In this document: positions 328 to 30,417 of the stretch, piece after piece | How positions within the stretch are numbered: position 1 is the first letter of the stretch | Layout of the letters: each line of letters begins with the position of its first letter | NCBI GenBank assembly: GCA_947601445.1 | Contig: CANQGD010000001.1 | Span: forward strand, 1-33,607 | DNA length: 33,607 bases | Reading direction: 5' to 3' | From: an uncultured Clostridia bacterium | Lineage (GTDB): Bacteria; Bacillota; Clostridia; Christensenellales; CAG-314 | Notes under the pieces: model-generated | Database searches by the model: none | What the model was told of the DNA's origin: nothing | Seen by the model: the letters and a program-made list of their open reading frames with translations, nothing else | Made by a program: the position numbers and the translations under genes

Positions 328-572
328 ATTCCGCTCCGCATCAGAGTGTAAGCACAGTATAATCCCCTTCTTGCAGTACTTTTTGCCGAGTTATGTATCT
401 TTGAGGCGGTAAATGAAAAATGTGCATTTAAGAAAAATCGCGGAAAAACGTCTTGTACATTGTCGGCGAAAAAATCCGCAAGTCCCGCGACTATTGCAAT
501 ATTCGAAACGGTAACGGTACGGACAGGACGTCGAAACAGTCGTTTTGTGCAGGTGTATATCGGGAGATTTAC
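328..572. other. Divergent intergenic region upstream of the phage cassette
   Basis: This gap separates the minus-strand secreted-protein gene from the terminase gene. A TATAAT hexamer at 358-363 has no convincing -35 box at the right distance on the plus strand. A 33-codon ORF at 413-514 has a GAGGCGG-like ribosome binding site but no recognisable product. No small terminase subunit gene is visible here. Confidence 0.4.
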
Positions 573-1991
573 TTGAAAGAAATAATAGCGCGTATAAACT
601 TAATCGAACGGGAACAGCAACGGCGCAAAGACAGTCCGCTTGCCCGTTACAACAAAGACAAAATTCATGTCAAACAAATGGAATTTCATCGATGTCTCAA
701 ACGCAACCGATGGGTTTTTGGGGGCAACCGAAGCGGTAAAACCGAGTGCGGTGCCGTGGAAACCGTTTGGCTTGCACGGGGAATACATCCTTTTCGCGCC
801 AACCGTCCCAATATAAGCTGTTGGGTGGTATCACTAAGTCAGCAAGTACAGCGGGACGTGGCGCAACAAAAGATTTTGTACTATCTGGACAAAAGTTGTA
901 TTCGCGAAATCGTGATGATAAACGGTTCGAGGGCAAGTCCCGAGTTCGGGGTGATAGATTACATCGTGATAGACAACGTTTTCGGCGGCACGTCCCGAAT
1001 TGCTTTCAAAAGTTGCGAGGCGGGCAGAGAAAAATTTCAAGGTGCAAGCCTCGACTTTGTGTGGTTCGACGAGGAACCGCCGCGGGATATTTACGAAGAA
1101 TGTCGTATGCGTATTTTGGATCGTAACGGACATATATTCGGAACGATGACGCCATTAAAGGGACTCAGTTGGGTTTACGACGAGATTTATCTGAACTGTC
1201 ATCGATCCGAGCAAGTGTGGTATGAGTTTATGGAATGGAGCGACAATCCCTATCTCGACGCGGACGAAGTTCGGTCGATGTCGGAAGCGTTGTCCGCCGA
1301 TATGCTTGAAAGTCGCCGTTATGGACGGTTTACGCAGTCGTCAGGCTTGGTTTATCCGGAGTTTTCCGAGGCAAACGTAATTCCGCCGTTCGACGTGCCC
1401 GATTCGTGGCAGGATGAAATTTCCGTCGATCCGGGATTAAATAATCCATTGTCCTGTCATTGGTATGCGCAAGACGGCGACGGAAATATATACGTTGTTG
1501 CCGAACACTATGAAGCAAAGAAAGACGTGGCGTATCACGCGGCGAAAATCAAAGAAATCTCGGAACGTCTCGGTTGGAAACATGACCGTTACGGACGGTT
1601 GTCGGTGCTTATGGACAGCGCCGCAAATCAGCGCACTCTCAACGGACAAAAAAGCGTATCCGAGTTGTTTTGCGAACACGGCATTACCGTTAATACGCGT
1701 GTGGACAAGGGAGTTTATGCGGGAATCAACAGAGTGAAAGCATTGCTCAAACCTATTTCGGGTCCTCCGAAACTGTACATTTTCAGCAGCTGTGTAAATA
1801 TGCTCAGAGAAATAAAAGGTTATTTTTGGGGAAGCGGAGAAATCCCCGTAAAACGCGACGATCACGCAATGGACGAACTGCGTTATTATGTGAGCAATCT
1901 GGCGGAACGCGGGCAGGAAAAAGTTTCAAAAACCTTGATTCAGCGTGATATGGAAAGGTTGTTGCGCGGTTTGAGAGGGGGTAAATTATGA
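573..1991 (+). CDS. terL: Phage terminase large subunit
   Basis: Packaging motor that translocates viral DNA into the procapsid through the portal and cuts it. With the TTG start at 573 it has 472 residues. The Walker A motif GGNRSGKT is at about 50-57, the Walker B strand DFVWFDEE at about 161-168, and the coupling motif GTMTP near 190. The C-terminal RNase H-like nuclease keeps its acidic residues: Asp in VDPG near 286, Asp in LMDSA near 348, and the DDHAMDELRYYV segment near 429-440. Both ATPase and nuclease therefore look intact. I prefer the start at 573 because GGGAG lies six bases upstream. The frame is also open back to a TTG at 453, but that stretch does not look like terminase. Its stop overlaps the next start (ATGA). 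The length and motif set fit the Terminase_6/P22 gp2-like group. No small subunit is adjacent. Confidence 0.93.
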   Translation: MKEIIARINLIEREQQRRKDSPLARYNKDKIHVKQMEFHRCLKRNRWVFGGNRSGKTECGAVETVWLARGIHPFRANRPNISCWVVSLSQQVQRDVAQQKILYYLDKSCIREIVMINGSRASPEFGVIDYIVIDNVFGGTSRIAFKSCEAGREKFQGASLDFVWFDEEPPRDIYEECRMRILDRNGHIFGTMTPLKGLSWVYDEIYLNCHRSEQVWYEFMEWSDNPYLDADEVRSMSEALSADMLESRRYGRFTQSSGLVYPEFSEANVIPPFDVPDSWQDEISVDPGLNNPLSCHWYAQDGDGNIYVVAEHYEAKKDVAYHAAKIKEISERLGWKHDRYGRLSVLMDSAANQRTLNGQKSVSELFCEHGITVNTRVDKGVYAGINRVKALLKPISGPPKLYIFSSCVNMLREIKGYFWGSGEIPVKRDDHAMDELRYYVSNLAERGQEKVSKTLIQRDMERLLRGLRGGKL

Positions 1992-2293
1992 TTTCCAAGG
2001 AGCTTTTGACCAAAATTCTGCTGAAAAAAGCCAAGGGTTACCGTTACACCGAAAAAACCGACGAATATGTGTTTTCCGAGGGTAAAAAACAACTTGTCAA
2101 GAGTAAAACCGTTACAAAACATGTCCATCCCGACGCGCATGCGATAAGCGCATTGCTTACAATGGAAGAAAACTTCGATGTTAGCAAGATGACGGACGAA
2201 CAGTTGCAAGTGGAAAAATTGCGGCTCATTCGTCTGCTCAAATTGATGGAAGAACAAAACGCAGCTCCGATGGAATCGGAAGAGACAACTTAA
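1988..2293 (+). CDS. Small phage protein downstream of terL
   Basis: A 101-residue, mostly helical charged protein whose ATG overlaps the terL stop by four bases, so the two are probably translationally coupled. It holds a KKAKGYRYTEKTDEYVFSE segment and a TKHVHPDAHAISALL segment. I associate that pattern with small proteins encoded beside terminase genes in Clostridia phages; some of these are annotated as terminase small subunit-like, but I see no helix-turn-helix that would prove it. The middle (MEENFDVSKMTDEQLQVEKLRL) is predicted helical. Role is most likely in packaging or head assembly, by position only. Confidence 0.75.
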   Translation: MISKELLTKILLKKAKGYRYTEKTDEYVFSEGKKQLVKSKTVTKHVHPDAHAISALLTMEENFDVSKMTDEQLQVEKLRLIRLLKLMEEQNAAPMESEETT

Positions 2294-2307
2294 AAAGGAG
2301 AATAAAT

Positions 2308-2535
2308 ATGCTGAACAAAATTAACGCAAAAACCAAATGCGACGTGCGCGACTGCAAAAATAACGCCGAATTTCAATTCGATACAAAGGGCAGAAACGGT
2401 AAATGTTTTTTGTGCGCCGAATGTGTCGCCAATCTGTGTGCGGACGGCAGGGCGCGTCTCGTGCCCAAAAGCCCGCAGAATACGATCAAAAAACATATTG
2501 ACAAAAAGTTAAAGGAGATGGACATTGCAGACTAA
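2308..2535 (+). CDS. Small zinc-ribbon-like phage protein
   Basis: A 75-residue basic protein with a strong ribosome binding site (AAAAAGGAG, 7 bases before the ATG). It carries four well-placed cysteines as CDVRDC and, about 22 residues on, CFLCAEC, a spacing that suggests a zinc-binding knuckle or ribbon. The C-terminal third is lysine-rich. It lies between terL and the portal gene, and its last four codons overlap the portal start. A DNA- or RNA-binding role in packaging is possible but only inferred. No family name recognised. Confidence 0.7.
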   Translation: MLNKINAKTKCDVRDCKNNAEFQFDTKGRNGKCFLCAECVANLCADGRARLVPKSPQNTIKKHIDKKLKEMDIAD

Positions 2536-4396
2536 AACGGAAAGTTTTCATAAACAAATAGACAAGTCGCCCTTGCCGAAAGAAAATAAAAAAACAAATT
2601 GCGAATTTGCCGACGATATTGTGCGTCAAATAAAGAAGGATTTTGCCGAACGTCAGCAAATGCGCCGCCCATATGAACTGAGTTGGCAGCTCAATATGAA
2701 TTTCGTTATGGGCAATCAATATTGTGCCATTTCGCCGCGCGGAGCCATAGAACAGGAGGACAAATATTACTTTTGGCAGGAAAAACAGGTATTCAATCAC
2801 ATTGCAACTATTGTTGATACTCGCGTTTCCCGTCTTAACCGTGTGCGTCCGCAACCCGTTGTCCGACCCTTTTCAGACAGTGAAGCGGACGTGAACACAG
2901 CCAAACTTTCCACAAAAATTTTATCCGCATTATCACAAAAGTTATGTTTGAGCGAGGCTGTTTCTCGCGCGACCGCTTGGAGCGAAGTGTGCGGAACCGT
3001 GTTTTACAAGCTGAGTTGGGACAATGTCAAAGGAGAAGCGCAATTGTCCGTATGTTCTCCTTTTGAAATCTATCCAGACAGCAACGTAACGCCGTCGTTG
3101 GAAGAATGTGCCTCTTTGATACATGCCAAAGTGTATTCCTCAGAGGAAATAAAGGCAATATGGGGTGAAGAAATCAAGGGAGAAACCGTAAAAGTGTTTG
3201 CGATAGACGGCGCTCAGAGTATAGGCGGATTGGGTTACAATTCGGTTGTACCGAGTATCGTGCAGGAAGCGAAACACAACCAGGTATTGGTAATCGAGCG
3301 TTATACCAAACCCACAGCCGACCTTCCGTGCGGTAAGTTGGAAATAGTCGCGGGCGACAAGCTGCTGTACAGCGGTGAACTTCCCTACCGTTTGGGCGAG
3401 GACGGAGAGTATGCCTATCCGTTTGTGCGTCAGGTATGTATGGAACAGACCGGATGTTTTTGGGGAACGAGCATGGTGGAGCGTGTTATTCCCATTCAAC
3501 GCGCTTACAACGCCGTAAAAAATCGCAAACACGAGTTTTTGAATCGACTTGCCATGGGAGTCCTGACGGTAGAGGACGGATCGGTCGATGTGGATAATCT
3601 GGAAGAAGAAGGTCTTTCGCCGGGTAAAATACTTGTTTACAGACAAGGATCGGTCAAGCCGTCTTTGATGGATGGAGGCAACGTACCGAGCGACTTTAAG
3701 GAAGAAGAGGAACAATTGCTCAAAGAGTTCATCACCGTTTCGGGCGTATCGGAGTTTGCGCGCAACAGTACCACGCCTACGCAGGTGACCAGCGGCGTGG
3801 CTTTGCAACTCATCGCGGAGCAGGATGATATTCGCATCTTTTGCAGCGTGGACAGCTTGAAAAATTCCGTCAAGCGTATATCCCGATTTTTGCTCAGATT
3901 GTACAAGCAGTTTGTAAGCGGACAAAAACTTATGCGTTTTTGCGACGGACAAAACAGCGCCGAGGTATTTTATTTTTCCGGAAGCGACGTAAATTCGGAC
4001 GACATTGTATTCGAAACGGAAAACGAACTCAGCGACAGTCTTGCCACGCGCAGAAGCATGCTTTTCGATTTGCTCAATGCGGGAGTGCTGGCGGATTCGG
4101 AGGGTAAACTATCCTCCGCTACCAAGGCGAAAATACTTTCGTTGATGGGATTCGGCAATTGGGAAGCGGCGCAGGATATAACGCAGTTGCACATTGCTCG
4201 CGCCAATCGCGAAAATGTCGATATAGATCATGCCGAAGTTTTGTCCGTAGACGATCATGCCATTCACATCGAAGAACACACGAGACACATTATAGGGGTC
4301 GATATAGACAGTGCCGATAAAATAAATCGCGACAAACTTATTGCTCATATCGAAGAACACAAAAAAAGGCTTTCCGACGTTGGTTTTGCCGGATAA
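2525..4396 (+). CDS. Phage portal protein
   Basis: 623 residues from a TTG start, with AAAGGAG 6 bases upstream and an 11-base overlap with the preceding gene. The portal is the dodecameric ring at one capsid vertex through which terminase pumps DNA and onto which the neck is built. The size and several stretches fit P22-like portals: an N-terminal helical segment with QMRRPYELSWQLN, a wing region with CSPFEIYPDSNV, and the stem/clip-side segment around VIPIQRAYNAVKNRKHE at about 322-338. This is followed by FITVSGVSEFARNS and TSGVALQLIAEQDD, typical of portal proteins. The last 40 residues are rich in His and Glu (HIEEHTRHI, HIEEHKKRL), as in C-terminal barrel helices. Gene order (terL, portal, scaffold, capsid) supports the call. 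Confidence 0.9.
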   Translation: MQTKTESFHKQIDKSPLPKENKKTNCEFADDIVRQIKKDFAERQQMRRPYELSWQLNMNFVMGNQYCAISPRGAIEQEDKYYFWQEKQVFNHIATIVDTRVSRLNRVRPQPVVRPFSDSEADVNTAKLSTKILSALSQKLCLSEAVSRATAWSEVCGTVFYKLSWDNVKGEAQLSVCSPFEIYPDSNVTPSLEECASLIHAKVYSSEEIKAIWGEEIKGETVKVFAIDGAQSIGGLGYNSVVPSIVQEAKHNQVLVIERYTKPTADLPCGKLEIVAGDKLLYSGELPYRLGEDGEYAYPFVRQVCMEQTGCFWGTSMVERVIPIQRAYNAVKNRKHEFLNRLAMGVLTVEDGSVDVDNLEEEGLSPGKILVYRQGSVKPSLMDGGNVPSDFKEEEEQLLKEFITVSGVSEFARNSTTPTQVTSGVALQLIAEQDDIRIFCSVDSLKNSVKRISRFLLRLYKQFVSGQKLMRFCDGQNSAEVFYFSGSDVNSDDIVFETENELSDSLATRRSMLFDLLNAGVLADSEGKLSSATKAKILSLMGFGNWEAAQDITQLHIARANRENVDIDHAEVLSVDDHAIHIEEHTRHIIGVDIDSADKINRDKLIAHIEEHKKRLSDVGFAG

Positions 4397-4472
4397 CAGG
4401 CGCCTCACGTACGAACGCTTGCAAGTCGACATTATAAAAATTCAAAAGCGTCCGCAAAGACCTTGGCGCCTG
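4397..4472 (+). ncRNA. Structured intergenic RNA between portal and scaffold genes
   Basis: Two nested inverted repeats fold this gap. The outer arms CAGGCGCC (4397-4404) and GGCGCCTG (4465-4472) are perfect. The inner arms CGAACGCTT (4412-4420) and AAGCGTCCG (4445-4453) pair with one mismatch. No T-run follows, so it is not a standard terminator. It directly follows the portal stop and sits 39 bases before the scaffold ATG. It may be an mRNA processing or stability element that raises scaffold/capsid output (inference). Confidence 0.5.
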
Positions 4473-4511
4473 ACGGGAAGTCATTAAATTTATTGGATAT
4501 AGGAGAAGAAA

Positions 4512-5021
4512 ATGGAAAATTTCGGCAAATTTGCCTCCGTCGAAGAACTTGTAAAAGGCTACGGCGAATTGGAAAAAGTTTTTACTCAAAAATGCCAACA
4601 ATTATCGGCATTGCAAAAGCAAATGAAAAATCTCGTCGACGGCGGCGATTCTCAAATCGCACCGTTTTACGAAAAAGAAGACAATGCGGCGGCTCAACCC
4701 TCTGACGTGCAAAAGAAAGGCACGAATTTTGAGATAAGTCCCGAAGCCGCATTCGAAGCAACATCCTGCGGTACAAATGCCGCGTCCGATCAATCGGCGT
4801 CACCGCAAACAACAGAAGGCACAGCCGAGTCAGTTGCAAATGACAGCGAAGCGGCGACAGTCCCTTCCCGTTCGGAAAACGCTGCCGACGGGAGTCGCGT
4901 AGCAGCCGTGCCCGATCCGCCCAGAGTAATGACCGGCGGCGGAAACGTGTCTATGGCGTTGCCAAACCGTCCAAAGACACTTCGTGAAGCGTCCGATTTG
5001 GCAAAAAAATATTTTAATTAG
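4512..5021 (+). CDS. Probable phage scaffolding protein
   Basis: 169 residues, with a good ribosome binding site (TAGGAGAAG). The N-terminus (FASVEELVKGYGELEKVFTQ) predicts an amphipathic helix and coiled coil. The middle, about 55-130, is low complexity and rich in Ala, Ser, Glu and Asp. The C-terminus is proline-rich then helical (PKTLREASDLAKKYFN), the layout of scaffolding proteins, where the C-terminal helix contacts coat subunits. It lies directly upstream of the major capsid gene, which is the usual scaffold position. Scaffolds co-assemble with coat into the procapsid and are removed before DNA entry. There is little sequence conservation in such proteins, so the call rests on position and composition. 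No protease gene is present nearby. Confidence 0.75.
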   Translation: MENFGKFASVEELVKGYGELEKVFTQKCQQLSALQKQMKNLVDGGDSQIAPFYEKEDNAAAQPSDVQKKGTNFEISPEAAFEATSCGTNAASDQSASPQTTEGTAESVANDSEAATVPSRSENAADGSRVAAVPDPPRVMTGGGNVSMALPNRPKTLREASDLAKKYFN

Positions 5022-5032
5022 GAGAAAAAGCG

Positions 5033-6196
5033 ATGGTAACACTTACAAGTGCGGACAACGCACTGAAAACACTCTATCTCGGTGTGGTGGCAGAGCAACT
5101 AAACACCGCGGTCAATCCGTTGCTTGCCCGCATCGAACAGACAAGCAGCGACGTTTGGGGAAAGGAAATACGCAAGTTGGCGCCATTCGGTATAAACGGC
5201 GGAATCGGCGCCGGTACCGAGGACGGCGAATTGCCCGCTTCCGCAGGCAACAACTACGCGCAATTTGTACTTACGCTGAAAAATTTGTACGGAACGATAG
5301 AAATTTCCGACAAAGCCATTCGCGCAAGTTCCGACAACAGCGGCGCATTCGTAAACTTGTTGGAAGCGGAAATGGAAGGGCTTATTCGCGCGTCGAAGTT
5401 CAACTTCGGTCGTATGCTTTATGGCGACGGAAGCGGTGTCTTGTGTAAAATAGAATCCGTTTCCGGAAATGAAATCACCGTGGATTCGGTTTCCAATGTT
5501 ATGGAAGGAATGGTTGTGGACGTGATAGGCAACAGCGGAAAAACGGCTGTCGTATCCGCTCGCCGTATTGTCGATATTGACCGCGAAGGTAAAAAAATCA
5601 CACTCAACGGTTCGGCGCTGACGGGAACGGCGACAGCGGGAGACTTTCTCACCGTACAAGGCAGTTACAACAAGGAAATCACGGGTCTCGGCGCCATTTT
5701 CGGAGACACACAAACCCTCTATGGACTGACGCGTGCTTCCAACAAGTGGCTTATGCCTTACAAAAAGACCGCAGAAACCCTTTCCGACGTGACTATTCAA
5801 AAGGCAATCGACACATTGGAAGAAGCGGCGGGGTCCGTTGCGGACTTTATTGTTTGTTCCGGCGGAGTAAAGCGCGCTTATCAGGATTATCTCATCACCA
5901 ACCGTACCAATATCGACGTGATGAATTTGCAGGGCGGATACAAGGCGATTTCTTACAACGGAATACCCGTCGTATCCGACAGGTTTGTCCCGGCAGGTAC
6001 GATGTATATTCTCAATACCGCCGATTTCCATTTGCATCAATTGTGCGATTGGCGTTGGTTGGAAGGAGATGACGGACGTATAATCAAGCAGGTTCACAAC
6101 AAGCCCGTATACACGGCGACATTGGTAAAATACGCCGATCTCATCTGTGACAGACCGATAGGTCAGGCAATGATCAGCGGAATAACGGAAGCGTAA
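5033..6196 (+). CDS. Major capsid protein, HK97-like fold
   Basis: 387 residues with ribosome binding site TTAGGAG. The shell-forming coat protein. The N-terminal region has the helical arm, then a glycine-rich E-loop-like stretch (GINGGIGAGTEDGELPAS, about 53-70), followed by NLYGTIEISDKAI and a helix containing MEGLIRASKFNFGRMLYGDGSG (about 114-135), all typical of HK97-type coats. Residues about 137-208 form a beta-rich block (KIESVSGNEITVDSV, DIDREGKKITLNGSAL) that looks like an inserted domain. The C-terminal half has an A-domain-like part with IPVVSDRFVPAGTMYIL. There is no sign of an N-terminal protease cleavage site; a separate scaffold is encoded upstream, so maturation by a prohead protease is not required by what I see. 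Confidence 0.9.
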   Translation: MVTLTSADNALKTLYLGVVAEQLNTAVNPLLARIEQTSSDVWGKEIRKLAPFGINGGIGAGTEDGELPASAGNNYAQFVLTLKNLYGTIEISDKAIRASSDNSGAFVNLLEAEMEGLIRASKFNFGRMLYGDGSGVLCKIESVSGNEITVDSVSNVMEGMVVDVIGNSGKTAVVSARRIVDIDREGKKITLNGSALTGTATAGDFLTVQGSYNKEITGLGAIFGDTQTLYGLTRASNKWLMPYKKTAETLSDVTIQKAIDTLEEAAGSVADFIVCSGGVKRAYQDYLITNRTNIDVMNLQGGYKAISYNGIPVVSDRFVPAGTMYILNTADFHLHQLCDWRWLEGDDGRIIKQVHNKPVYTATLVKYADLICDRPIGQAMISGITEA

Positions 6197-26339: not shown

Positions 26340-26758
26340 GTCAATTCCTCCATTGGTTACATATTGCATACTATTTATTTTGCAAAATTTTTGTTACTGC
26401 CGCGGCGCGATTGTACGCCGGGATATTTTTATATAACAAGTAAAAAAGATTTCGATTATAATGTAAATTTTAATAATTCCGTTTATATACGCGGCGATGA
26501 TTTTTTCGTTTCGTCCGATATTATTTGCGCGACATTTTTGTATCGGGCTTGCGACCCTGAAACAATTTTATTACGCACCGAGCGCCGCAAAAGGAAGTTC
26601 CCGTCGATAGATAACCAATCCGCGAAAACGAACTGTTTGAAAGGTTTTTTGCCCCAAATCTTGACATAAATTTTCGATTGGTATTTGCAACTGCCGCGAT
26701 CTATGTGAAAAGATTTCTTCGCTTTGACCGTTCCTCCGATATTTTTTCAATCATTTGC
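26340..26758. other. Divergent leader region of the ABC operon
   Basis: No credible gene. On the minus strand a TATAAT (complement of 26455-26460) could be the -10 box of the importer operon but its -35 is weak. A GC-rich inverted repeat (CGGCG/CGCCG on the minus strand, near 26400-26420) lies in the leader. An 8-base motif CATACTAT at 26367-26374 recurs elsewhere in the window. Confidence 0.4.
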
Positions 26759-26787
26759 TTGCCAAATGCGGCTTGCGGTGTTAAAAT
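26759..26787 (+). promoter_or_regulatory. Probable promoter of the valS T-box leader
   Basis: TTGCCA at 26759-26764 and TAAAAT at 26782-26787 are spaced by 17 bases. This would start transcription near 26794, shortly before the first paired strand of T-box Stem I at 26809. Confidence 0.6.
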
Positions 26788-26793
26788 TTGTAA

Positions 26794-27050
26794 TATAAAA
26801 ACGTTTGAGGCGCAAGGCTTTGTCAAACTGCCTTTTCAGAGAGCGAACTGGGGTGAGAATTTCGCAAGGCGGGAGACAACGGTGTAGTGCGCCGAGTTGA
26901 CAGTGCAAAACGGTGTCCGAGGACAAAAGTAGTGCTGTTCGGGTCGCTCCGTTAACGGCGATAACGAGGACTTGTTTGCAATTGCCGCAAGTCGAAACAA
27001 GGTGGTACCGCGAGTATTTTCGCCCTTGGCAAATGCCAAGGGCTTTTTGT
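26794..27050 (+). promoter_or_regulatory. Valine T-box leader of valS
   Basis: A tRNA-sensing riboswitch: uncharged tRNA-Val pairs with the specifier and with the T-box and lets transcription pass. Stem I base GGCGCA (26809-26814) pairs with TGCGCC (26888-26893). Inside it CTGCCTT pairs with AAGGCGG, and GCGAA with TTCGC closes the top, with the usual AGAGAGC and GGTGAGAA conserved bits. The specifier loop 3' side GGTGTAG (26881-26887) holds two valine codons in alternative frames, GTG and GTA; I favour GTA (26884-26886), as a purine follows. The T-box motif AAGGTGGTACCGCG is at 26999-27012; TGGT fits a tRNA ending ACCA. It ends in a strong terminator, 27022-27048. Confidence 0.93.
27022..27048 (+). 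terminator. T-box terminator hairpin
   Basis: Arms GCCCTTGGCA (27022-27031) and TGCCAAGGGC (27034-27043) with a two-base loop, followed by five T. It is the off-state of the valS leader. Confidence 0.93.
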
Positions 27051-27059
27051 AAGTCGCTT

Positions 27060-27788
27060 GCCTTCGTCGGCGCAACGCGCCCGCAGGGTCATGATCGAGA
27101 GTGCGAAAAGGAAATAAAAAAAATAATAAAAGTCCAATATCGCCGAGTCGATTTGACCGACGAACATTCGGGCAAGTGTTTAAAATGTTCGGAATTTGAG
27201 TGAGCGAAAACGCGCGGAGCAAGCGTTGTAGCGGAGAGGACTCAAATTTCGTTGCAAGCGGCGACCGGTGCGGCGCTTGCAGTCCAAGCGGGGGATGGCG
27301 GGGAAAGCGACTCCCCGCCGAAAGTACAAAAAAACAAGCCAACGTGTCATTGGCTTCCGTAACGCTCGCCTTCGTCGGCGCAACGCGCCCGCAGGGTCGT
27401 GATCGCGAGAGCGAGAAGAAAATGAAAAAAAATAAAAGTCCAATATCGCCGAGTCGATCGGATCGACGAACATTCGGGCAAGTGTTTAAAATGTTCGGAA
27501 TTTGAGTGAGCGGAAACGCGCGGAGCAAGCGTTGTAGCGGAGAGGATTCAAATTTCGTTGCAAGCGGCGACCGGTGCGGCGCTTGCAGTCCAAGCGGGGG
27601 ATGGCGGGGAAAGCGACTCCCCGACGAAAGTACAAAAAAACAAGCCAATGTGTCGTTGGCTTCCGTAACGTTCGCCTTCGTCGGCGCAACTCGCCCGCAG
27701 AGTCGTGATCGCGAGAGCGAGAAGAAAATGAAAAAAATAATAAAAGCCTCAATATCGCCGAGTCGATCGGACCGACGAACATTCGGGC
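27060..27788 (+). repeat. Tandem array of a 307-bp hairpin-rich element (two full units and a partial third)
   Basis: Unit one spans 27060-27367, unit two 27368-27673, and a third stops after 115 bases at 27788, just before the valS ribosome binding site. Units one and two differ at only about twenty positions. Each full unit folds into several perfect or near-perfect hairpins; in unit one: AATTTGAGT (27193-27201) with ACTCAAATT (27240-27248), TGCAAGCG (27253-27260) with CGCTTGCA (27274-27281), GGCGGGGA (27297-27304) with TCCCCGCC (27312-27319), and AAGCCAA (27336-27342) with TTGGCTT (27350-27356). Units two and three add a TCGC-GAGA-GCGA tetraloop hairpin (27403-27414 in unit two). Open frames of 101 codons on the plus strand and 270 on the minus strand merely follow the repeat. 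Possibly a dispersed or mobile non-coding element; unknown to me. Confidence 0.85.
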
Positions 27789-27804
27789 GAATAAAAGGAG
27801 TTAT

Positions 27805-30417
27805 ATGTTAGAAAAAACCTACAATCCAACCCAGTTTGAACACAAACTTTACGATTTTTGGATGCAGCAAGGCTATTTTACGCCTAAGGCGGAGATAGGC
27901 AAACCGTATTTTTCAATAGTTTCGCCTCCCCCGAACATTACGGGACAGTTGCATATCGGACACGGCTTGGATAATGCTATTATGGATACGATAGTACGTT
28001 TCAAACGTATGCAAGGCTACAATACATTGTGGTTACCCGGAACCGATCATGCAAGTATCGCTACGGAGGTAAAAATTGTCGAAACATTAAAGGCGCAAGG
28101 TATCGACAAACACGACCTCGGTCGCGAAAAATTTCTTGAACGCGCATGGCAGTGGAAGGAGCAGTACGGCGGACGCATTGTCGAACAGCTAAAAAAACTG
28201 AGCAGCAGCTGCGATTGGAGCCGTCTTGCATTCACTATGGACGAAAAATGCAGCGAGGCGGTTCGCAAGCAATTTGTATCGATGTATAAAAAAGGCTTGA
28301 TTTATCGCGGCAACCGCATTATCAATTGGTGCCCCGTTTGTAAAACGGCGCTGAGCGATGCGGAAGTGGAATATTCCGAGCAAGACGGGCATTTTTGGCA
28401 TTACGGCTACACGACGCCGGACGGAAAAACGACCGTTACTTTTGCTACGACGCGCCCCGAGACAATGCTCGGCGACACTGCTGTTGCAGTCAACCCCAAC
28501 GATCCGCGCTACACCCATTTGATCGGCAAAACGGTAATCGTGCCCTTTGTAAACCGTGAAATTCCCGTCATTGCGGACGAATACGTCGATATGGAGTTCG
28601 GTACAGGCGTTGTAAAAATCACTCCCGCCCACGATCCCAACGACTTTGAAGTGGGAGTAAGGCACAATCTGCCCGTTATTCGCGTGATGAACGACGACGG
28701 CACTATGAACGAAAACGCGGGCGAGTTTGCCGGTTTGGATAGATATGAAGCGCGCAAACGCATTGTGGCTCGCCTTAAAGAAATGGGCATTTTGCAAAAG
28801 GTGGAGCCGCACAAACACAATGTGGGCAGTTGTTATCGTTGTCATACAACCGTAGAGCCGATCGTATCCAAGCAATGGTTTGTTAAAATGCAACCTCTTG
28901 CCGAACCGGCTATCGAAGCGGTAAAAGAGGGCAAAATAACGTTTCATCCCGAGCGTTTTGCCAAAACTTACTTCAATTGGATGGAGAATATCAAGGATTG
29001 GTGTATATCCCGTCAATTGTGGTGGGGGCATCGTATACCCGTATGGTACTGCGATGATTGCGGCGCGGAAATCTGCGAAGAGGCCGATCCTTCCGTATGT
29101 CCGAAATGCGGCGGTCATCATCTTCATCAGGATGAGGATGTGCTTGACACCTGGTTCAGCAGTGCGCTGTGGCCGTTCTCCACTCTCGGATTTTACAAAA
29201 ACAGCGACGATTTCCGTGCATTTTTCCCGACGAGCGTGCTTTCTTGCGGCTACGACATAATATTCTTTTGGGTAGCTCGCATGATTTTCAGTTCGCTCTA
29301 CGCAACGGGTCAAGTTCCTTTCAGACACGTGCTTATGCACGGTATCGTGCGGGACGAGCAGGGACGCAAAATGAGCAAATCTCTCGGTAACGGTGTGGAC
29401 CCCGTAGATTTTATCGACAAATACGGCGCGGACACATTGCGTTTTGCGCTTATAAACGGCGTCGCAAACGGTTCGGATATACGTTTTGCACCGGACAAGA
29501 TCGACGGTACTCGCAATTTTATGAACAAAGTGTGGAATGCAAGTCGGTTTGTGTTGATGAACGCGGAGGGAAAAACTCTGGTTTCTCTGGAAGAGTGTTC
29601 TTTGAATCTTGCGGATAAATGGATTTTGACAAGACTTAACGACGTTATAAAACAAGTTACGGAGTTGCTGGAAAAATTTGAGTTGGGCATGGCGGCGCAA
29701 ACTCTATATGACTTTGTTTGGAGCGAGTTCTGCGATTGGTATATCGAGTTTACCAAACCCGTTTTGTACGGCACGGACGAAATTGCCCGTCGCGATACTT
29801 TGTCGGTGTTGTGCTATGTGTTGGACGCTATTCTCAAATTGCTGCATCCGTTCGCTCCCTGCATAACGGAAGAAATATATCAGTCTACTCCGAATCACGG
29901 CGAAAGCATAATGATCCAACGTTTCCCCGAGTTTGAAGAAAAGTATTATTTCGCCGCCGACCGTGATATTGTCGAGGAACTCAAAGAGATTGTCACAAAA
30001 ATCCGCAATATTCGCAGCGAATATGCAGTAGCGCCGAGCAAACGTATACGTCTGTATGTTACGGCGACGGACAAGCGTATCGAAAGCTGCGATTTGTATC
30101 TTGTAAAGCTGTGCGGTCTTGAAGAAGTCGTATTTTCTTCTGCGCCGACTTCGGAAAAAAGCGTAAAAACGGTCAGCGCGGCGGCGGTGTGCGAAGTGCC
30201 GTTGGGTGATCTTGTAGATAAGGACAAGGAAATCGAACGCTTGACAAAAGAATTGGAAAATATCGTGGGTGAAATTGCCCGCGCGGAAGCAAAACTTAAC
30301 AATGCTGGCTTCCTTGCCAAGGCGCCGGCTCATCTTGTGGAAAACGAAAAATCCAAGTTGACAAAGTACCGCGAACTTCAAGCGCAGTATAATGCTCGCC
30401 TTGCGGAGTTGAAATAA
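27805..30417 (+). CDS. valS: Valyl-tRNA synthetase
   Basis: 870 residues with AAAAGGAG upstream. Class I synthetase charging tRNA-Val, with an editing domain that clears Thr. HIGH motif at 50-53 in PPNITGQLHIGHG, KMSKS at 522-526 in GRKMSKSLGNGVDP. The editing (CP1) domain contains FATTRPETMLGDTAVAVNP and TPAHDPNDFEVG. A zinc-like cluster CDDCGAEICEEADPSVCPKCGG is near 417-438, and DEDVLDTWFSSALWPFSTLGF follows. The C-terminal arm (VDKDKEIERLTKELENIVGEI to the end) is the coiled coil that contacts tRNA in ValRS. Complete and of normal length. Controlled by the T-box at 26794, from which it is separated by the repeat array. Confidence 0.98.
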   Translation: MLEKTYNPTQFEHKLYDFWMQQGYFTPKAEIGKPYFSIVSPPPNITGQLHIGHGLDNAIMDTIVRFKRMQGYNTLWLPGTDHASIATEVKIVETLKAQGIDKHDLGREKFLERAWQWKEQYGGRIVEQLKKLSSSCDWSRLAFTMDEKCSEAVRKQFVSMYKKGLIYRGNRIINWCPVCKTALSDAEVEYSEQDGHFWHYGYTTPDGKTTVTFATTRPETMLGDTAVAVNPNDPRYTHLIGKTVIVPFVNREIPVIADEYVDMEFGTGVVKITPAHDPNDFEVGVRHNLPVIRVMNDDGTMNENAGEFAGLDRYEARKRIVARLKEMGILQKVEPHKHNVGSCYRCHTTVEPIVSKQWFVKMQPLAEPAIEAVKEGKITFHPERFAKTYFNWMENIKDWCISRQLWWGHRIPVWYCDDCGAEICEEADPSVCPKCGGHHLHQDEDVLDTWFSSALWPFSTLGFYKNSDDFRAFFPTSVLSCGYDIIFFWVARMIFSSLYATGQVPFRHVLMHGIVRDEQGRKMSKSLGNGVDPVDFIDKYGADTLRFALINGVANGSDIRFAPDKIDGTRNFMNKVWNASRFVLMNAEGKTLVSLEECSLNLADKWILTRLNDVIKQVTELLEKFELGMAAQTLYDFVWSEFCDWYIEFTKPVLYGTDEIARRDTLSVLCYVLDAILKLLHPFAPCITEEIYQSTPNHGESIMIQRFPEFEEKYYFAADRDIVEELKEIVTKIRNIRSEYAVAPSKRIRLYVTATDKRIESCDLYLVKLCGLEEVVFSSAPTSEKSVKTVSAAAVCEVPLGDLVDKDKEIERLTKELENIVGEIARAEAKLNNAGFLAKAPAHLVENEKSKLTKYRELQAQYNARLAELK

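What the first reader, a model, noticed from the sequence alone, without database searches (positions are those of the whole stretch)
27060..27788. Hairpin-rich 307-bp tandem repeats lodged between a T-box terminator and valS
Aminoacyl-tRNA synthetase leaders normally pass from the T-box terminator to the start codon within about a hundred bases. Here about 730 bases of two near-identical units and a partial third intervene. Each unit has four or more perfect stems. Differences between units mostly keep pairing: in the AATTTGAGT/ACTCAAATT stem C becomes T (G-C to G-U), and in the AAGCCAA/TTGGCTT hairpin both sides of one inner position changed (C/A to T/G). All of it would be made only after antitermination. 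It could be a new structured RNA, a mobile non-coding element, or a processing or stability element.
Basis: partly seen in the sequence, partly recalled or inferred. Interest (0 to 1): 0.75.

Follow-up and report, generated by a model that had tools for sequence, protein, structure and literature searches.

The report
Mobile multi-hairpin repeat in valS leader
The repeats before the valyl-tRNA synthetase gene belong to a scattered family of mobile non-coding DNA elements of gut Clostridia, built from strictly conserved hairpins, that often sit right at the ends of genes, where they may act as transcription stop signals.

Summary
The array is real: window 27055-27788, period 306, 2.4 copies, between a valS T-box terminator and the valS ribosome-binding site. 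It is not just a local duplication. Its hairpin core occurs in 18 of 25 genomes of the genus, up to 46 copies in one, with strong covariation (0.384; shuffled 0.124). The layout is hairpins H1-H4, then a branched hairpin, module A. Of 88 distinct copies, 15 have ISL3-type inverted ends on both sides; 7 of these 15 have 7-8 of 8 matching flanking bases (control 1.9%), and ISL3 transposase genes of the genus bear matching ends. In copies without the ISL3 tail, 56 of 78 face a converging gene, and 32 of 56 end 0-5 nt from its stop codon (30 protein families). H4 with its A-rich linker reads as an intrinsic terminator towards that gene (62 of 114 cores; 10 of 114 the other way; 5.7% shuffled). I read it as a mobile, self-terminating 3'-UTR element that works like pneumococcal BOX/SPRITE repeats. 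In the window valS is read in the non-terminating direction, so the array probably only lengthens the leader. What moves copies without ISL3 ends is unknown.

The parts
26795..27043 (+). T-box leader of valS with its intrinsic terminator hairpin (27022-27043)
   Evidence: Rfam RF00230 79.8 bits; terminator scan
27055..27173 (+). module A, copy 1 (its own B part is missing)
   Evidence: TRF and repeats; 89% identical to copy 2
27174..27189 (+). 16-nt spacer AAGTGTTTAAAATGTT, repeated at 27480-27495
   Evidence: sequence
27190..27251 (+). B1 hairpin H1: arms 27190-27201 and 27240-27251
   Evidence: inverted repeat I2, 92%
27254..27280 (+). B1 hairpin H2: GCAAGCG 27254-27260 with CGCTTGC 27274-27280
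   Evidence: covarying helix 1 of model R1
27297..27319 (+). B1 hairpin H3: GGCGGGG with CCCCGCC
   Evidence: covarying helix 3 of model R1
27320..27356 (-). H4 plus A-rich linker: on the minus strand terminator-like (stem 27356-27336, then GTTTTTTTGT)
   Evidence: terminator scan; family statistic
27363..27479 (+). module A, copy 2
27496..27664 (+). B2: H1 27496-27507/27546-27557, H2 27560-27586, H3 27603-27625 (one pair broken by C>A at 27624), H4 27642-27662
   Evidence: model R1 hit 27555-27667, 113.9 bits; differences
27626..27662 (-). second minus-strand terminator-like site (H4 of unit 2)
27669..27788 (+). module A, copy 3; TCGCC + TTCGTCGG pairs with CCGACGAA + CATTC bulge + GGGCGA
   Evidence: model R2 hit 27666-27792, 26.5 bits, E 8e-4; fold
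27795..27807 (+). valS ribosome-binding site AAAGGAG and start codon ATG 27805

Best explanation
The array is a tandemly duplicated, ISL3-end-less copy of a mobile non-coding element family that lives in this genus of gut Clostridia. Shown: the element is an optional hairpin H1, then H2, H3, H4 and a 3' branched hairpin (module A) with a foot CCGACC/GGTCGG, a one-sided bulge mostly GCGTTT and a diverging but nearly always paired inner stem (the window carries the foot variant TCGCC/GGGCGA). In two species (G002, G012) copies lie between ISL3-type inverted repeats, part of them flanked by 8-bp duplications; many other copies end with module A, a few bases from the stop codon of a gene running towards it. 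Inferred: ISL3 transposases move the ISL3-ended form in trans; something still unidentified moved the other form. Inferred: once in place, a transcript that leaves the adjoining gene folds module A just behind its stop codon and terminates at H4, whose A-rich linker becomes a U-tract in that direction, so the element brings its own 3' end and costs its neighbour little. In the window the element lies the other way: RNA polymerase that has passed the T-box reads it in the direction in which H4 is not a terminator, so valS is still made, with about 735 extra leader nucleotides. The A-spacer-B-A-spacer-B-A order would follow from unequal exchange between flanking A modules (inferred).
For: Dispersed copies: 18 of 25 genus genomes at E<=1e-3, up to 46 copies in G002 (at most 150 candidates per genome scored, so lower bounds). 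Structure: 84 distinct rows, 96.4% of cells paired, covariation 0.384 against 0.124 in shuffles and at most 0.076 when slid; module A 0.277 against 0.089, at most 0.068 slid. ISL3 ends: 15 of 88 distinct copies have both ends, 7 of 15 have 7-8 of 8 matching flanking bases against 1.9% of 210 mismatched pairs; such ends were found in 4 of 7 ISL3 loci examined (in G012, G019 twice, G002), and the G012 one is an ISL3 transposase by Pfam. Mobility: of 24 valS upstream stretches read, G000 and G002 carry the element between terminator and gene; the obg-yhbY gap carries it in G011 and G023 and is 7 nt in G015 and 33 nt in G020. Stop codons: 56 of 78 usable copies without ISL3 tail have a converging right-hand ORF; 32 of 56 end 0-5 nt from its stop; of the 51 with both neighbours called, 30 observed against 1.8-6.5 expected; the 32 genes fall into 30 protein families. 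Terminator: 62 of 114 antisense, 10 of 114 sense, 5.7% shuffled.
Against: The window copies have no ISL3 ends, and the own genome has no ISL3 match. Only 15 of 88 copies have both ISL3 ends, 58 have neither, and 8 of the 15 lack a good target duplication; 3 of 7 ISL3 loci examined showed no such end. 52 of 114 cores do not pass the terminator rule. In the window alone the terminator scan is no better than shuffles (3 found, mean 2.2). In the obg-yhbY operon a terminator facing obg should cut off yhbY, which is awkward. 22 of 78 tail-less copies do not face a converging gene, and 24 of 56 that do are more than 5 nt away. Nothing shows transcription or termination experimentally. Conserved H2 and H3 are not needed for the terminator reading.
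Confidence: 0.68

Rival explanations
1. A REP-like element: module A is a GTAG-tagged palindrome moved by a Y1 (IS200-like/RAYT) transposase that recognises the folded single strand; H1-H4 are passengers.
For: The hairpin foot is preceded by AG(T/C), A and G in 47 of 47 tail-less copies taken by pattern, with T at -4 in 29 and G at -5 in 26 of 47; position close to gene 3' ends as published for GTAG REPs (PMC3733652, passages); strict Watson-Crick covariation.
Against: No module A match by pattern in the 24 fetched Y1 loci or L060/L061, whose flanks reach at most 1.5 kb; element-rich genomes G010, G011, G022, G023 and G024 have no Y1 match; the element is several times longer than a REP.
Confidence: 0.15
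2. A structured leader RNA of valS that works in cis, for example a second regulatory or stability domain after the T-box.
For: The valS leader carries it in two species, G000 and G002, each with A on both sides of B; G021 has a copy whose end lies about 520 nt before valS.
Against: The other 22 valS upstream stretches read show none between terminator and gene; for 13 of them only the last 340 nt were printed. The family sits beside at least 30 unrelated genes, mostly at gene ends, not in leaders.
Confidence: 0.06
3. Selfish DNA with no activity beyond transposition; closeness to stop codons only shows where insertion is tolerated, and terminator likeness is a side effect of hairpins beside A-runs.
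For: Convergent gaps also collect pneumococcal BOX, RUP and SPRITE, read there as parasites (PMC3049150, passages).
Against: Tolerance predicts a spread of distances, yet 32 of 56 are 0-5 nt from the stop; the terminator likeness is one-sided (62 against 10 of 114).
Confidence: 0.25
4. The array encodes short proteins (101 aa on +, 270 aa on -).
For: Long open frames exist; the unit is GC-rich and 306 is a multiple of three.
Against: No Pfam match; family members differ in length out of frame; compensatory changes follow stems.
Confidence: 0.02

Closest known systems
BOX elements of Streptococcus pneumoniae (boxA-boxB(n)-boxC)
   Same: Modular hairpin-forming interspersed repeats with variable tandem modules, IS-like ends proposed as the basis of movement, enriched between converging genes; one lies between T-boxes upstream of the trp operon (PMC3049150, abstract and passages)
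   Different: Unrelated host, other hairpin set, conserved 3' branched hairpin, end often at a stop codon; no BOX model was available to test sequence relatedness
SPRITE repeats of S. pneumoniae
   Same: Interspersed repeat that resembles a Rho-independent terminator and prefers convergent gaps (PMC3049150, passages)
   Different: Here the terminator-like part is one of five hairpins and is one-sided
GTAG-tagged REPs / BIMEs with RAYT
   Same: Unpaired tag at one foot, palindrome with compensatory stems, position just behind coding regions (PMC3733652, passages and section 16)
   Different: REPs are 20-40 bp with RAYT genes nearby; here a unit of 306 nt and no Y1 gene associated; the passages read name no Firmicutes host of GTAG repeats
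ISL3-derived MITEs
   Same: Inverted ends of ISL3 type, 8-bp duplications, no transposase inside, ISL3 genes in the same genomes
   Different: Only a minority of copies; window copies lack the ends
Mobile attenuators (terminators spread by IS), PMC2965389
   Same: Terminators dispersed by transposable elements and possibly exapted (passages)
   Different: Those lie upstream of genes; this family lies mainly behind stop codons

Membership tests
ISL3-type MITE | terminal inverted repeats shared with an autonomous IS of the genome | tested here: inconclusive
   Both ends in 15 of 88 copies, from G002 and G012, matching ISL3 loci of G012, G019 and G002; not seen in the window copies, and G000 has no ISL3 match
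ISL3-type MITE | 8-bp target-site duplication | tested here: inconclusive
   7 of 15 two-ended copies with 7-8 of 8 matching bases, control 1.9%; 8 of 15 fail; window copies have no ends to test
GTAG-REP | unpaired GTAG tag at one foot of a palindrome | tested here: inconclusive
   A and G in 47 of 47, T at -4 in 29, G at -5 in 26; window copies have GTAAC before the hairpin
GTAG-REP | association with a RAYT gene | tested here: not met
   Y1 matches in 12 of 25 genomes, none with module A by pattern in the held flanks
GTAG-REP | size 20-40 bp | tested here: not met
   unit 306 nt here, two-ended elements 343-588 nt
BOX element | boxA, boxB, boxC sequences | not tested
   no BOX models at hand
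BOX element | modular, structured, dispersed intergenic repeat with IS-like ends in some copies | tested here: met
   works like one, not shown to be one
Rfam RNA family | match to a known family | tested here: not met
   26750-27830: only the T-box at E<=1; no match in the window at gathering score
T-box leader | Rfam RF00230 model over its full length | tested here: met
   79.8-bit match, model positions 1-219 of 219, below gathering 93
integron attC | paired core sites RYYYAAC / GTTRRRY (recalled) | tested here: not met
   module A foot is CCGACC/GGTCGG in 30 of 30 aligned rows, with a one-sided bulge

The most novel reading that the evidence does not exclude
Module A is the recognition end of an undescribed class of mobile element in an order of uncultured Clostridia: an enzyme reads the folded single strand by its conserved foot and bulge, ignores the inner stem (which therefore diverges freely while staying paired), and inserts the element directly behind stop codons, where its built-in one-way terminator replaces the gene's own 3' end. 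The same foot and bulge around unrelated stems in two other families of the order, with a possible converging stop within about 6 nt in three of the six stretches I read (by eye), would make this an order-wide system.
Probability: 0.25. Interest if true: 0.82.

Novelty: new variant of a known kind. Interest (0 to 1): 0.55.

Why it matters
A covariation-supported mobile element whose end often lies within a few bases of stop codons, and which carries a one-way terminator-like hairpin, would be a clear case of a transposable element that supplies 3' ends to host genes. It gives a large natural series (114 distinct cores in hand, many species) to test whether such elements are tolerated or used, and whether pairing is kept at the DNA or RNA level. 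It also explains an otherwise odd array in a T-box leader.

Tried and rejected
Local duplication only: rejected by copies in 18 of 25 genomes. Coding: rejected. Phage or plasmid origin: no match in the phage and plasmid collections by distant blastn; no viral contig with the module A frame in two exact-pattern scans. RAYT mobilisation: Y1 loci lack module A by pattern. attC: foot and bulge do not fit. The weak R1 hits in G057 of another family (6 listed) look like a different GC-rich hairpin repeat in the one I read (L187). A tRNA control for wobble needed three scripts (the first two gave no count). First gene-context counts with all ORFs were spoiled by frames running across the GC-rich element (25 of 60 counted as inside an ORF) and were redone with other rules, on fewer copies, gave 43 of 60 converging and 21 of 43 at 0-5 nt, and 17 of 22 converging for copies with the ISL3 tail. 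Pairs dropped before the wobble count: three of 20 (columns 14-56, 67-77, 80-200); they hold 101 G.T cells, 75 of them one near-constant T.G at the foot of H3, and columns 14-56 are unpaired in 31 of 82 rows; with all 20 pairs wobble is 108 of 1662 cells. The module A count drops none. By their listings, hold no paper on this family; two searches returned none; one search was a look for the source of the rabbit MAGs and did not find it.

Full report
The array spans 27055-27788 with period 306, 2.4 copies and 94% matches, directly after a T-box leader (Rfam RF00230, 26795-27030, 79.8 bits) whose terminator hairpin is 27022-27043, and it ends 16 nt before the valS start codon at 27805. It is best described as A-spacer-B-A-spacer-B-A, where B holds hairpins H1 to H4 and A is a larger branched hairpin.

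Copies occur elsewhere. In the own genome blastn finds only the array, while a covariance model of H2-H4 (R1) adds one diverged copy, C25:252-362, 55.5 bits. Across the genus the model finds matches in 18 of 25 genomes (own included) at E<=1e-3: G002 46, G004 28, G019 25, G012 24, G006 21, G021 16, G005 14, G024 13, G011 12, G022 11 and fewer in others; 7 have none (at most 150 candidates per genome were scored). In a draw of 396 genomes of the order, 18 are positive, 17 of them of this genus. A pattern scan of named genome contigs gave 45 stretches, all from MAGs titled uncultured Clostridia bacterium Lapin or Clostridiales bacterium HAN102/HAN104; contig lengths equal those of G002, G004 and G011 contigs, so these are probably the same genomes (inference; 'Lapin' suggests rabbit, recalled).

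The structure is under constraint. On 106 matches, 84 distinct rows, 96.4% of cells pair, 13 of 20 pairs show changes on both sides, and the covariation score is 0.384 against 0.124 in shuffles and at most 0.076 for slid structures. The alignment was fitted to the model, which leans towards it. Module A, aligned by MAFFT from 30 of 42 distinct copies I had extracted, has a six-pair foot that never varies, a one-sided bulge mostly GCGTTT, and a seven-pair inner stem in which all seven pairs vary on both sides; score 0.277 against 0.089, though the number of further pair types is reached by 17 of 500 shuffles. The 30 were chosen by a pattern containing the foot, so its invariance is partly built in. 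Window copy A3 matches that model weakly (26.5 bits, E 8e-4) and has another foot.

Wobble pairs are scarce. Module A has 6 G.T and 7 A.C cells of 750. In the B core, 17 of 20 pairs hold 7 G.T and 4 A.C of 1413 cells with letters; the three pairs left out hold 101 G.T cells, mostly one near-constant T.G at a stem foot. Nineteen tRNAs in the held loci have 25 G.T of 401 (ARAGORN reported no A.C). This leans to pairing kept at DNA level, but shared ancestry of copies makes it weak.

Mobility. In G002 the core lies within elements with ends like GGTTCTGTGAGAAATGTTGGGG and CCCCAACATTTGCCATAGAGCC. Such ends were found in 4 of 7 ISL3 loci examined: before the transposase in G012 and in two G019 loci, and beside a fragment in G002 (Pfam PF01610, PF14690 and PF13542 for the G012 protein). 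ISL3 matches occur in 5 of 25 genomes and not in G000. Of the 24 valS upstream stretches read, G000 and G002 carry the element between terminator and gene; of the other 22, 13 were printed only for 340 nt. G021 has a copy ending about 520 nt before valS. Between obg and yhbY, G011 and G023 carry the element one base behind the obg stop codon; G015 has a gap of 7 nt and G020 of 33 nt, while some others have longer gaps, and G022 has an R1 hit some 330 nt behind obg in the other orientation.

Position. Without the ISL3 tail, the element's 3' end is the module A foot GGTCGG. Of 110 distinct module A copies, 78 lacked the tail and had a callable right neighbour; 56 of 78 face a converging ORF of at least 100 aa (binomial p 1.5e-4), and in 32 of 56 the stop codon is 0-5 nt away. 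For the 51 with both neighbours called, 30 were observed where uniform insertion predicts 1.8, or 6.5 if H1 is always counted as element. The 32 genes form 30 protein families by blastp at 1e-10. ORFs were called by length, not by a gene finder. The other 22 of 78 have a gene reading away, 8 of them within 14 nt of the called start. The window is of that rarer kind.

A one-way terminator. H4 follows an A-rich linker. Read from the module A side, it is a stem followed by a U-tract: 62 of 114 distinct cores meet a simple terminator rule in that direction, 10 of 114 in the other, 5.7% of shuffles. In the window both H4 copies do so on the minus strand, but that region as a whole is no richer in terminator-like sites than shuffles; it does hold more promoter-like sites (4, mean 0.6), one of them on the + strand inside the array. 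Hence the model: a transcript leaving the adjoining gene folds module A and ends at H4. valS is read in the silent direction.

Wider frame. A search of 396 genomes with the module A model found it in 15 genomes of this genus and in five of two other families (G162, G186, G208, G285, G299). In the six stretches I fetched, the frame GTCCGACC...GCGTTT-GGTCGG holds simple perfect stems of unrelated sequence, and in L307, L309 and L312 a TTA that could be a converging stop follows within about 6 nt (by eye).

What is known. Pneumococcal BOX elements are the nearest analogue: modular, with IS-like ends, over-represented between converging genes, and one lies between T-boxes of the trp operon, where the authors judge the riboswitch still functional (PMC3049150; abstract and passages). 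SPRITE repeats resemble terminators (same paper). GTAG REPs lie close behind coding regions (PMC3733652; abstract, passages and section 16); the REP passages I read name no Firmicutes host. Mobile attenuators are described by PMC2965389 (passages). The MITE review PMC10969869 was read in passages. By their listings, hold no paper on this family; subscription papers are not held.

Verdict. That the array belongs to a dispersed, structured, mobile family is well supported; that it acts as a self-terminating 3'-UTR element elsewhere and as a bystander at valS is the best reading but untested; the enzyme for the ISL3-less form is unknown.

Noticed in passing
window 453-6196: Left end of the window looks like prophage structural genes: terminase large subunit (Pfam Terminase_6N/6C) and a weak SU10-type major capsid match below its cut-off.
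   Followed up: partly
L046 (G018), valS leader: A module-A-like hairpin (GTCCGACTGCGACGG ... CCGTCGCACGTTTGGTCGG) lies just upstream of GGTGGTACAGCG in the valS leader of G018; a different meeting of this family with a valS T-box. Seen by eye; not among the R2 hits listed.
   Followed up: no
L246 (G021), 764-955: A complete copy lies about 520 nt upstream of valS in G021 (R1 and R2 hits; valS place).
   Followed up: no
L052 (G008), 973-1500: The valS leader of G008 is also long (518 nt from GGTACCG to ATG), but with a different, C-rich degenerate repeat.
   Followed up: no
L098, L099, L106, L107, L110 (G002): A further hairpin cassette (GGGTACCCGCACAAGTTGAG ... GTTGTGACGA) sits between H4 and module A in some copies: the element takes up extra modules (by eye).
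   Followed up: no
L007, L126, L127, L132, L145, L159 and 5' flanks: Short repeats of the module A 3' end (GCGTTTGGTCGG or near) stand alone or in tandem beside complete elements, as if earlier insertions had left only their 3' ends.
   Followed up: partly
L187 (G057): Another family of the order carries its own GC-rich hairpin repeat (CCCGGGGGAGGGAAACC...GGTTTCCCTCCCCCGC), twice in 500 nt.
   Followed up: no
L053/L055 (G022): valS of G022 appears split in two matches, one with an in-frame TGA.
   Followed up: no
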